A stretch of 64,000 bases of DNA from Gemmatimonadota bacterium. Lineage in GTDB: Bacteria; Gemmatimonadota; Gemmatimonadetes; Longimicrobiales; Gaopeijiaceae. This document shows, piece after piece, positions 38,041 through 45,496 of this stretch (positions are counted from its first letter, which is position 1; each line of letters starts with the position of its first letter). The DNA lies in NCBI GenBank assembly GCA_022823145.1, contig JAJDXS010000080.1, positions 1-64,000 on the forward strand, read 5' to 3'. Below the pieces are notes generated by a model. That model made no database searches and was not told the origin of the DNA. It saw nothing but the letters and a program-made list of their open reading frames with translations. A program made the position numbers and the translations under genes.

Positions 38041-38077
38041 TGGACAAAAGCGGTACTTCGCGTGCTATATTGCGCCA
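38041..38077 (+). promoter_or_regulatory. Candidate extended -10 promoter (possibly leaderless) for the Rieske gene
   Basis: TGGACA (38041-38046), 19-nt spacer, TG-C-TATATT (38063-38071), ATG at 38077. Confidence 0.4.
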
Positions 38078-39186
38078 TGGACACGCATGCGAGTGGCCGT
38101 TCGCTCCGCGTCCTCGAAAAGCTGCCTCCATTCCCCGAAGGATGGTACTTCCTCACGGATCGCAAGACCCTGGAGGAGAAGAAGCTGATCGAGAGAAAGT
38201 GGATGGGCGAGGAGATCGTCGCCTGGAGCGACGAGGAAGGTCGAGTCTGTGTCGCCGACGCCTACTGCCCGCACCTGGGGTCGCACATGGGACCGACGGT
38301 GGGTGGTGTGGTGCGCGACGGGTGCCTGGTCTGTCCGTTCCACGGATTCACCTTCGACACGACCGGCCGGTGCGTCGCCGTTCCGCATGCCCCGGCCCCG
38401 AAGGCTGCGCGATTGAGGGTTTACGAGACCCACGAGATCCTTGGCATGATCTTCGGCTGGTGGGGCAGCGGGGGCAGAGCGCCGCAATGGTATCTGCCCG
38501 AGGAGCCGCCCACCGGCTCGGACTGGAGTAGCTTGCGCTCCACCAGGTTGCGCTTCCGGGGCCATCCCCAGGAAACGACGGAGAACTCCGTGGACCTGGA
38601 GCACCTGGACTACACGCACGGCTATCACGACGTGGAACCGACCGCTCCCCTGGCCATCGATGGCGCCTACCTGAAGAGTTGCTTCGACTTCAAGAACGTC
38701 CGCCGGTTCGCGGGTCTGGTCGACATCGTCTCCGAAGTCTCGGCCGTCACCCACGTCCACGGGCTGGGGTTCTCATTTGTCGAAATCCGCGAAAAGACGG
38801 TAGGCATGAGTGCGAGAATGTGGGTTCTCGCAACGCCCGTAGCGGACACGCGGCTCGAGATGACGCTGGTTACCCAGGTCCGGGAAATCCGCAGGCCGGG
38901 GCGATTTTTCGTGGGCCTGGGGTTCCTGCCCGTGCCGTTGCGCCACAGGCTGATGAGTCGCTTCTTCCTGTCGGAGGAGAGGCGGTTCGTCCTGCAGGAC
39001 GTGGTCATCTGGAATCGGAAGCGGTATTGTGTCCCGCCCCGGCTGTCCCGGGCCGACGGCCCCATCGGGAGGTACCGCCTGTATTGTCGGCAGTTCTACC
39101 CGGAAATGCGATCACGGGCCGAGCCGCCGCGCCGACTCGGATTGGTGGGCGTGGCCGGCCGTCCGGCGGGAGAGGGTCGAGGGTGA
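38077..39186 (+). CDS. Rieske [2Fe-2S] non-heme iron oxygenase, resembling SdmA/KshA/DAF-36-type sterol or steroid oxygenases
   Basis: Rieske CPHLGSHMG and CPFHGF; mononuclear-iron motif ETTENSVDLEHLDYTHGYHD; RFRGHPQETTEN. Confidence 0.88.
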   Translation: MDTHASGRSLRVLEKLPPFPEGWYFLTDRKTLEEKKLIERKWMGEEIVAWSDEEGRVCVADAYCPHLGSHMGPTVGGVVRDGCLVCPFHGFTFDTTGRCVAVPHAPAPKAARLRVYETHEILGMIFGWWGSGGRAPQWYLPEEPPTGSDWSSLRSTRLRFRGHPQETTENSVDLEHLDYTHGYHDVEPTAPLAIDGAYLKSCFDFKNVRRFAGLVDIVSEVSAVTHVHGLGFSFVEIREKTVGMSARMWVLATPVADTRLEMTLVTQVREIRRPGRFFVGLGFLPVPLRHRLMSRFFLSEERRFVLQDVVIWNRKRYCVPPRLSRADGPIGRYRLYCRQFYPEMRSRAEPPRRLGLVGVAGRPAGEGRG

Positions 39187-44200: not shown

Positions 44201-44435
44201 GCGCGAGGCGATCATCGAGGGGGCCAAGGGCCGTTTTCGTCCGATCATGCTTACTTCGCTAACCACCTTCCTCGGCTTCACACCTCTGATTCTTGAAGAC
44301 GCCATTCAGGCCCAGTTCTTCGTCCCCTTCTCCGCCTCGATCGGGTGCGGGATCCTCTTCACCACGGCCATGCTGATGTTCCTCGTGCCCGCGCTGTCCT
44401 CGCTGCGCCTGCACGTGACCACCCGGGCCGGCTAG
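41256..44435 (+). CDS. RND-superfamily efflux permease (HAE-like)
   Basis: 12-TM-type layout; PFPGATPEEVEEAIVVKIEDEVRGL, AIGIIVDDAIVVAEHIHLERMR (TM4 DD), GLAGVVVNDSLVMMDFI. Confidence 0.93.
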   Translation: MSGNSSNHGEPGGPIAYMASNGVAANLLMFGIIAAGLVSLTGLEQEGWPEVPFNQFEISVPFPGATPEEVEEAIVVKIEDEVRGLADVKAVRSIAAPGMASVRVEVNSGTDMGAKKDEIESAVGRIQTFPGGAEQPQIREMTNAQSVIRLIVHGDVPERSLKELAYRIEDDLAALPSVSQVATSGVRNYEISIEVPQQRLRALGLTLIDIANTIRRNSLDLSAGSIDTRESQVRVRTLGQSYDQQDFEEIVLLSRDDGTVVRLGDIAEVRDGFQDTDLIVRHQGQPAVFVEVSRAKGERVMSVARAVKEHVANEVIPSLPNGVGVTIWNDDSTAFTERAALLLKNGALGLLLVLIALGLFLEVRLAFWVAVGLGVAGIGALSAMMVFDIAIHAVSLFSFVLAIGIIVDDAIVVAEHIHLERMRGTSGLVAAIRGARRIKVPLIFAVLTTIVAFVPLLFIPAGFGEVWKALPIIVIAMLVISLIESLLVLPNHLSHHLHGPDWAPRTGAERFIARIQGRVDSLLNSFIQGPLDHGMRFATDRPGVTLSAAVAVFVLTISLLPAGIVPTTFATEVEGDFVTATLQMPDGTTARQTDAVARELEAAGHRVIQRLSEGRPADASPLLSGVTVVVGQRSRIETGGLNPSPTLNPEANIATIEFKLLPAQQRRITSGEVMQAWREEVGVLPQVRAITFMSEIYTLGNPLEAVLSHPDPERLVTIASSVVDELRRVTGVFDIRSDHTPGVPEVQLGLLPEARTLGLSLDALAQQTRAVFFGAEALRVQRGRDEVRVYVRLPEEQRNSIADIESYLLRTENGAEVPVSRVASLSPGMSPPSVRRQDGQRVVTVTADVDPNVISAGEANGILENTILAGLVDANPGLTYTFGGEQQQQLDSLGALYRGFAIALLIIFALLAIPLRSYTKPFIIMAIIPFGFVGVILGHWVLGVALSAESFVGIFGLAGVVVNDSLVMMDFIDQEIEEGLPAREAIIEGAKGRFRPIMLTSLTTFLGFTPLILEDAIQAQFFVPFSASIGCGILFTTAMLMFLVPALSSLRLHVTTRAG

Positions 44436-45496
44436 CCGTTGAGGGGCTTGCGCGCCAGGAAACAGTACAGCGGCGAGAAGATCCCGGTTCTCCCGCCAGC
44501 GACATAGGCGTCCGCAGTCCGATCCATGAGTCTGGCAACCTCCGCCGATCCCTCGGGGAACACCCGCAGAAGCTCGGCCAGCCTGGTTCCCCAGGAAAAA
44601 ACCTTGCGACCCACGGGAGTCCGGAAGAGAGCCTTGCCGAGCCACCCGTGCCGGGCTTCCAGGGGCCGATACCACGGCGTGGCCGGACCGGTCTCATCGA
44701 CAGCGATGTCCGTCGCCTCCAATACCTCGAATCCAGCGGTTTCGAGGGCCTGGTCTACCTCCCCGAACGTTGCAATATCCGCAAGCGCGATGCCGTGCAT
44801 CAGTTCCCGCTTGATGGTCCGGTGGCCATCGTCGTCGGGATCGTACATGTCCGTCATGCACATTTCCTGGCCCCAGAAAAGGGCTCCGGGCTTGAGGATA
44901 CGGTAGATCTCGGCAAACGCGCGCGCCTTGTCGGGAGCATGGCAGGTCGATTCGATCGCGTAGCTCCGGTCGAAGGTCGCATCCGCGATGCAGCTCATAT
45001 TCATGAAGCTGCAAGCGATGCAGTCGATCATGTGATCGAGCCCCGCCTCTGCATTCAGCGACCTGGCCCTGCTCAGCTGGACTTCGTTGCTGTTGATTCC
45101 CGACACCCGGACACCGGCCTCGCGGGCGACGCGGCGCATTGGACCCCCGACGCCGCAACCGATGTCGGCCACCGTCATGCCTTCACGCAGTTCCAGCTTG
45201 GCGATCATCTGCCGTTGGTGCCGAATCTTTGAGTCCTTCAGACTCTCGTCGGGCGACAGCGGCGCGAAGTGCAGCGATTCTCCCCAGTGGTAGACCATCA
45301 ATTCGCTACAAAGGTCGTAGTACTCCGTTACGGTCCGGGTGTGGTCGTAGTCGGCTGTGCGGCCATCCGCGGCGAACGCTCTGCCCGTCCATCCTTCGAA
45401 ATCACGCACGCGACGGCTGACGTTGGTTTTGCCGAACGCGGCCTTCAGTCCGTCGGATAGTCTACGCAATTGCTTCGCTTTCTCATGTACGTGCAA
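44432..45496 (-). CDS. Sterol C-24 methyltransferase (ERG6/SMT)-like SAM methyltransferase
   Basis: YHWGESLHFAPLSPDESLKDSKIRHQ, VADIGCGVGGPMRRVAREAGVRVSGINSNEVQLSRA, YAIESTCHAPDKARAFAEIYRILKPG, MTDMYDPDDDGHRTI, TPWYRPL, PEGSAEVARLMDRTADAYVAGGRTGIFSPLYCFLARKP; collinear with yeast ERG6. Confidence 0.92.
   Translation of the reverse strand: MHVHEKAKQLRRLSDGLKAAFGKTNVSRRVRDFEGWTGRAFAADGRTADYDHTRTVTEYYDLCSELMVYHWGESLHFAPLSPDESLKDSKIRHQRQMIAKLELREGMTVADIGCGVGGPMRRVAREAGVRVSGINSNEVQLSRARSLNAEAGLDHMIDCIACSFMNMSCIADATFDRSYAIESTCHAPDKARAFAEIYRILKPGALFWGQEMCMTDMYDPDDDGHRTIKRELMHGIALADIATFGEVDQALETAGFEVLEATDIAVDETGPATPWYRPLEARHGWLGKALFRTPVGRKVFSWGTRLAELLRVFPEGSAEVARLMDRTADAYVAGGRTGIFSPLYCFLARKPLNG

What the first reader, a model, noticed from the sequence alone, without database searches (positions are those of the whole stretch)
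38077..45496. Candidate bacterial sterol/steroid-like lipid tailoring and export locus
Seen: tightly packed Rieske oxygenase -> GPP34-P450 (4-nt overlap) -> RND permease (6-nt gap), meeting a convergent sterol-methyltransferase-like gene. Known: bacterial sterol C-4 demethylation uses a Rieske oxygenase (SdmA); P450s (e.g. CYP51) modify sterol nuclei; RND-type BstA has been implicated in bacterial sterol transport; SMTs alkylate the C-24 side chain and bacterial SMTs are known from uncultured bacteria. Inference: the four genes together suggest tailoring and trafficking of a sterol or related triterpenoid. No squalene epoxidase or oxidosqualene cyclase is visible in the window, so the substrate could be made elsewhere in the genome, come from a host or diet, or be non-sterol.
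Basis: partly seen in the sequence, partly recalled or inferred. Interest (0 to 1): 0.88.

Follow-up and report, generated by a model that had tools for sequence, protein, structure and literature searches.

The report
Sponge-symbiont sterol-tailoring gene module
A bacterium related to known sponge symbionts carries a set of genes that most likely modifies and moves sterols, probably taken from its host; the same set recurs in sponge-type bacteria labelled as eleven phyla, sometimes directly beside a complete sterol-making gene cluster, and it includes two enzymes of a kind not described before.

Summary
The four genes are really there and intact: a KshA-type Rieske oxygenase, a GPP34-P450 fusion, an AcrB-type RND pump and a convergent sterol-methyltransferase (SMT) homologue. 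One detail changes: the P450 probably starts at ATG 39219 behind a strong Shine-Dalgarno, 32 nt after the Rieske stop, not with a 4-nt overlap.

The module is conserved far beyond the window. The GPP34-P450 (61-96% identity) was found in 80 listed loci from MAGs labelled as 11 phyla, largely sponge MAG sets by bin name. Rieske, SMT, an FAD oxidoreductase and an RND-superfamily transporter recur beside it. In six loci it adjoins sterol-biosynthesis genes (squalene epoxidase-oxidosqualene cyclase fusion, CYP51, ERG24, SdmA). This P450 is about as conserved between phyla as RecA and does not track RecA relatedness, so it has been transferred.

The window's genome shows no cyclase or squalene epoxidase, so a host-derived sterol is the likeliest substrate. 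By sequence the Rieske is not SdmA, the pump is not BstA and the P450 is not CYP51. The SMT belongs to a fully supported divergent clade lacking ERG6's Tyr81-Glu82. Sponge-symbiont sterol clusters and SMTs are known; I found no description of this module, the fusion or this SMT clade. Reactions are untested.

The parts
38077..39186 (+). Rieske non-haem iron oxygenase, KshA-like C-terminal domain
   Evidence: Pfam Rieske + KshA_C; nearest solved structures are KshA 4qdc/2zyl; CPH, CPFH and the D..H / H / D motif positions conserved in 58 homologues
39203..39208 (+). Shine-Dalgarno AGGAGG of the GPP34-P450 gene
   Evidence: sequence, and conserved downstream ATG spacing in relatives
39219..41249 (+). 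GPP34-cytochrome P450 fusion (alternative GTG start 39183)
   Evidence: Pfam GPP34 and p450; full-length homologues in 80 listed loci
39264..39866 (+). GPP34 (GOLPH3-like) domain of the fusion
   Evidence: Pfam PF05719, 101 bits
39969..41207 (+). P450 domain; haem-ligand Cys629 and ExxR (E550/R553) invariant
   Evidence: Pfam PF00067; invariant columns of A1
40650..40682 (+). non-canonical I-helix IASVYLGDAFS in place of the (A/G)Gx(D/E)T motif
   Evidence: S494, Y496, G498, D499 invariant in 39 homologues; the in-genome paralogue has GLDTTAST
41256..44435 (+). RND permease, HAE1/AcrB type
   Evidence: ACR_tran 521 bits; RND_permease_2 413 bits and no BstA match
44432..45496 (-). SMT homologue, divergent 'type A'
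   Evidence: Methyltransf_11 + Sterol_MT_C; 35% identity to yeast ERG6; type A clade 100/100
45293..45298 (-). Met67-Val68 of the SMT, at the positions of ERG6 Tyr81-Glu82 (Region I)
   Evidence: alignments

Best explanation
This is one genomic copy of a horizontally spread sterol-remodelling module of marine-sponge bacteria. Proposed mechanism (inferred): a sterol, in this genome most likely acquired from the host, partitions into the inner membrane. The GPP34 domain docks its fused P450 on that membrane. The P450, whose oxygen-activation motif is unusual, and the KshA/DAF-36-type Rieske oxygenase oxidise the steroid nucleus or side chain; an FAD oxidoreductase (encoded on another contig here) oxidises or desaturates the product; and a divergent SMT methylates the side chain. 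An RND-superfamily permease moves the sterol between inner membrane and periplasm or outer membrane. Shown here: gene content, conservation, adjacency to sterol-synthesis genes in other carriers, transfer across phyla, and no detected cyclase or squalene epoxidase in this MAG. Inferred: the substrate, order of steps, products and transport direction.
For: GPP34-P450 in 142 loci of GTDB species genomes, 80 listed, 11 NCBI phyla. Conserved partners around it. L016, L023, L045, L058 and L083 hold the squalene epoxidase-oxidosqualene cyclase fusion with CYP51-like and ERG24 genes (SdmA too in all but L083), and L022 holds SdmA, ERG24 and CYP51 with the cyclase elsewhere in its genome. The transporter is swapped but stays RND superfamily: AcrB, or MMPL with a Sterol-sensing/Patched domain in Chloroflexota. 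Rieske nearest KshA. SMT 35% to ERG6. Best fold matches of the P450 model are lanosterol-bound Methylococcus CYP51, CYP46A1 and other CYP51s (low-confidence model). No cyclase or squalene epoxidase in G000. Cross-phylum transfer: rho = -0.13 between RecA and P450 identity outside the genus and phylum labels scattered on the trees. Sponge symbionts are published carriers of sterol clusters and functional SMTs (PMC9531527, PMC10070321).
Against: No activity data. The MAG is 92.8% complete, so cyclase absence is not proven, and the ERG24 absence test had no positive control. The SMT lacks ERG6's Tyr81-Glu82 and may not alkylate C-24 at all. The window RND is a generic HAE1 pump by sequence. The structural model is weak (pLDDT 67, P450 core about 50). 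Sponge origin rests largely on bin names. Only 5-6 of 80 loci directly adjoin sterol-synthesis genes.
Confidence: 0.78

Rival explanations
1. Steroid catabolism: the KshA-like oxygenase opens ring B so that host sterols are used as carbon source, with P450 and pump as accessories.
For: The Rieske is nearest to KshA; KshA homologues forming sponge-specific clusters were reported in sponge MAGs (PMC5790920).
Against: No HsaC-type extradiol dioxygenase match in G000 (one marker only). A side-chain methyltransferase and contiguity with sterol biosynthesis point to building or remodelling, not degradation.
Confidence: 0.07
2. The module tailors hopanoids or another non-sterol terpenoid or carotenoid.
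For: Many Chloroflexota, Nitrospirota and Acidobacteriota carriers have a squalene-hopene-type cyclase; the SMT is divergent; MMPL partners also resemble HpnN.
Against: About 29 of 50 carrier genomes, including the window's close relatives, show no convincing cyclase of either kind, nor does the window's own. Sterol_MT_C, the KshA domain, and CYP51/ERG24/SdmA neighbours are sterol-specific.
Confidence: 0.09
3. A detoxification cassette: two oxygenases and a multidrug-type pump that modify and expel sponge toxins, with the SMT an unrelated convergent neighbour.
For: The RND is HAE1 multidrug type; the SMT is convergent and absent near some copies.
Against: Type A SMT is near the P450 in half of the well-covered loci from many phyla; AcrB is replaced by sterol-sensing-domain MMPL in Chloroflexota.
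Confidence: 0.06

Closest known systems
Clusters of steroid genes (CSGs) of Ircinia symbionts (ERG24-CYP51-LSS, often flanked by SMT; PMC9531527)
   Same: Sterol genes in sponge-symbiont MAGs of about ten phyla, with reported horizontal transfer; in six loci here the module adjoins such a cluster
   Different: CSGs make the sterol; this module lacks cyclase, CYP51 and ERG24 and occurs in genomes without them. GPP34-P450, the KshA-type Rieske and the RND gene did not appear in the passages read
Bacterial sterol 24-C-methyltransferases of sponge symbionts (PMC10070321)
   Same: SMT family with C-terminal Sterol_MT_C; same kind of hosts, including Aplysina aerophoba
   Different: Window SMT is in the divergent type A clade (100/100, stem 0.96) without the Region I Tyr-Glu; canonical type B SMTs are separate genes in the same loci. 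Which type each tested enzyme belongs to could not be checked
3-ketosteroid 9alpha-hydroxylase KshA
   Same: Rieske + KshA_C architecture, conserved metal-ligand motifs
   Different: Sequence similarity is moderate (86 bits); context is biosynthetic, not catabolic
BstA/BstB/BstC sterol transport of Methylococcus (PMC10942540)
   Same: RND superfamily gene beside sterol genes
   Different: BstA is MMPL type; window RND is HAE1/AcrB with no BstA match. The Chloroflexota MMPL partners match BstA only weakly (39 bits)
GOLPH3/Vps74 (GPP34) proteins
   Same: GPP34 domain, known in eukaryotes to bind Golgi phosphoinositide membranes
   Different: Fused to a P450; no literature on such a fusion found; lipid ligand unknown

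Membership tests
Sterol C-4 demethylase SdmA | Match to the SdmA equivalog model NF052579 | tested here: not met
   Window Rieske 42 bits vs cut-off 600; the separate SdmA-like gene in L045 scores 402 bits, itself below cut-off
KshA/KshA-like Rieske oxygenases | Rieske domain plus KshA_C domain with conserved metal-ligand motifs | tested here: met
KshA (3-ketosteroid 9alpha-hydroxylase, function) | 9alpha-hydroxylation of a 3-ketosteroid within a degradation cluster | not testable with these tools
   Only context: no HsaC-type match in G000
Sterol methyltransferase (SMT/ERG6 family) | SAM motif plus Sterol_MT_C, full-length homology to ERG6 | tested here: met
Canonical sterol 24-C-methyltransferase | Region I YExGWG (ERG6 Tyr81-Glu82) and YEW Region IV | tested here: not met
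   Met-Val/Gln in Region I; WGQEMC replaces YEWxM; consistent across the type A members shown
BstA | Match to NF045600 | tested here: not met
   No match at E<=0.001 for the window RND
CYP51 | Best match and motif of sterol 14alpha-demethylases (AGxHT I-helix) | tested here: not met
   I-helix IASVYLGDA; distinct CYP51-like gene present in the same loci; only distant similarity to CYP51 structures
Canonical P450 monooxygenase | Haem Cys and ExxR; acid-alcohol pair in I-helix | tested here: inconclusive
   Cys629 and ExxR invariant, acid-alcohol pair absent
Sponge-symbiont CSG (PMC9531527) | ERG24, CYP51 and LSS together | tested here: not met
   No cyclase in the window genome and no ERG24 found (without positive control); met instead in L016, L023, L045, L058, L083

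The most novel reading that the evidence does not exclude
The type A SMT, working with the GPP34-P450 and Rieske enzymes, makes a side-chain structure whose enzyme is unknown, for example C-26 methylation of host sterols. The paper that found the 24-isopropyl-forming SMTs lists enzymes for the 26-methylstigmastane sponge biomarker as undiscovered. Bacteria without their own sterol synthesis would then be a source of a 'sponge' biomarker.
Probability: 0.1. Interest if true: 0.95.

Novelty: new variant of a known kind. Interest (0 to 1): 0.8.

Why it matters
It suggests that sterol handling in sponge bacteria is much wider than de novo synthesis: many unrelated symbionts share one transferable kit for modifying sterols, most without detectable means to make them. 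The kit contains a P450 fused to a Golgi-type membrane adaptor domain, with an altered catalytic helix, and a divergent clade of sterol methyltransferases. Both are defined, expressible targets, and they bear on two open questions: what bacteria do with host sterols, and which organisms make the unusual side chains used as the earliest chemical evidence for animals.

Tried and rejected
The own-genome ERG24 search had no ringing control, so it is weak. The AlphaFold model from 39 similar sequences is poor in the P450 core, so its fold matches are only a hint. A largest-ORF cluster of 754 aa without Pfam match looks like antisense or overlapping reading frames and was dropped. Literature on bacterial GOLPH3-like proteins gave nothing useful. 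Matching the L016 cluster to the published A. aerophoba scaffold was not possible because accessions and supplementary tables were out of reach. Rejected: SdmA, BstA and CYP51 identity for the window genes. Purely vertical inheritance was rejected for lack of correlation with RecA, although a shared aminotransferase/GH116 flank in L020, L064 and L067 hints at older residence within Gemmatimonadota.

Full report
OBSERVATION. The four genes are intact and arranged as described. The Rieske gene (38077-39186) has a KshA_C domain. The next gene fuses a GPP34 domain to a P450 in one frame. The RND gene begins 6 nt after it, and the methyltransferase gene converges, its stop overlapping the RND stop by 4 nt. 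The proposed 4-nt overlap between Rieske and P450 depends on a GTG start. A perfect AGGAGG and ATG 39219 give a 32-nt gap, and relatives show a corresponding ATG at similar spacing, so I prefer that start.

CONSERVATION. A scan of GTDB species genomes with the GPP34-P450 found 142 encoding stretches; the best 80 were kept, at 61-96% identity. Their titles cover 11 NCBI phyla. Bin names fall into sponge MAG sets: jk18x bins are named in the Ircinia study PMC9531527, and the RHO, COS, APA, SB06xx and binNN NODE sets are sponge projects from my own knowledge. The 277c, 287ce and Plut sets and eight long-read assemblies I could not verify. Each neighbourhood was mapped. In the 46 loci with about 10 kb on each side, 38 have the Rieske, 38 an RND-superfamily gene, 25 the FAD amine-oxidase-like gene, 23 the type A SMT, and 28 have at least three of the four. 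The transporter differs by lineage but stays in the superfamily: AcrB in Gemmatimonadota, Acidobacteriota and Latescibacterota (with a HlyD adaptor in some), MMPL with a sterol-sensing/Patched domain in Chloroflexota, and MMPL often with a LolA-like protein in Proteobacteria.

LINK TO STEROLS. In L016, L023, L045, L058 and L083 the module adjoins a squalene epoxidase-oxidosqualene cyclase fusion, a CYP51-like P450 and ERG24; SdmA is also present in all but L083, where it is not seen in the short locus. L022 carries SdmA, ERG24 and the CYP51-like gene, with a cyclase elsewhere in its genome. Among 50 carrier genomes, about seven have the oxidosqualene-cyclase type, nineteen a squalene-hopene type, and about 29 neither (three of these have only weak partial matches). 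The window genome (4.49 Mb MAG, 92.8% complete) shows neither cyclase domain and no squalene epoxidase, though it has two squalene/phytoene-synthase genes. Its FAD gene (83% to that of L007) lies on another contig next to a second GPP34-P450. The simplest reading is a remodelling kit that sometimes serves endogenous sterols and more often acquired ones.

THE PROTEINS. The Rieske is nearest to KshA structures (86 bits) and is not SdmA (42 of 600 bits). The RND is HAE1 with no BstA match (BstA in PMC10942540). The P450 keeps the haem cysteine and ExxR but replaces the I-helix acid-alcohol motif with an invariant S-x-Y-x-G-D, while the in-genome paralogue has a canonical GLDTTAST. This may mean unusual chemistry or oxygen activation; that is inference. 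The predicted structure is of low confidence; its best PDB matches are lanosterol-bound Methylococcus CYP51 and other sterol P450s. The SMT is 35% identical to yeast ERG6 (the query used was confirmed as S. cerevisiae by P0121). Two SMT types occur. Type B has canonical Region I; type A, the window's, has Met-Val/Gln for Tyr81-Glu82 and WGQEMC for YEWxM. Type A forms a 100/100-supported clade on a long stem, separate from the eukaryotic sequences and nested among bacterial ones, though the branch joining it to Nitrospirota type B is only 93/74.

TRANSFER. Against the window genome, RecA identity and GPP34-P450 identity are uncorrelated outside genus-level relatives (rho = -0.13, n = 43). In non-Gemmatimonadota carriers the P450 is on average as conserved (70%) as RecA (68%). 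A Palauibacter and a BD2-11 MAG with RecA 78-83% have a P450 of only 66%, whereas the MAG labelled Opitutia has RecA 65% and P450 76%. Phylum labels are scattered on the P450 tree, and Acidobacteriota type A SMTs sit inside Gemmatimonadota. Within the window's order, close full-length copies are confined to its own family, mainly two genera.

KNOWN AND NEW. Known: sterol clusters in Ircinia symbionts of ten phyla with transfer (PMC9531527), functional sponge-symbiont SMTs including ones that make 24-isopropyl side chains (PMC10070321), and KshA homologues in sponge MAGs (PMC5790920). Not found in the library: GPP34-P450 fusions, this module, or a C-26 SMT. The library holds open-licence papers only, so absence there is not proof. 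Hence: a new variant of a known kind, with two new protein types, and function at the level of sterol tailoring likely but untested.

Noticed in passing
L099 (G000:C10:90000-101906), 9888-11804: The window's genome has a second, 33%-identical GPP34-P450 fusion with a canonical I-helix, about 2 kb from the module's FAD gene; similar paralogues occur across the genus and family.
   Followed up: partly
L005 / G000:C23:63247-63855: A stand-alone GPP34 protein is present in almost every genome of the genus; function unknown.
   Followed up: no
L016:15096-18758, L023, L045, L058, L083: Squalene epoxidase and oxidosqualene cyclase are fused in one frame of about 1140-1220 aa in sponge Nitrospirota-type loci.
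   Followed up: partly
L014, L017, L019, L071: MAGs titled Gammaproteobacteria look like Gemmatimonadota: L014 and L071 have RecA 83-84% identical to the window's genome, and L017/L019 group with L014 on the P450 tree; taxonomic labels of sponge bins need care.
   Followed up: partly
window 36014-37984 and 45528-48278; L020, L064, L067: MGH1/GH63-like and GH116-like glycosidase genes flank the module; the GH116 gene and a LysJ-like aminotransferase also flank it in distant Gemmatimonadota.
   Followed up: partly
window 31528-36069: LysW-type lysine/ornithine biosynthesis genes (LysX, semialdehyde dehydrogenase, kinase, aminotransferase) lie just upstream; probably ordinary.
   Followed up: no
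L049:13987-14961 and 15117-17444, L048, L059, L083: In Proteobacteria the module's transporter is an MMPL gene accompanied by a LolA-like protein, which looks like an inner-to-outer-membrane lipid route.
   Followed up: no
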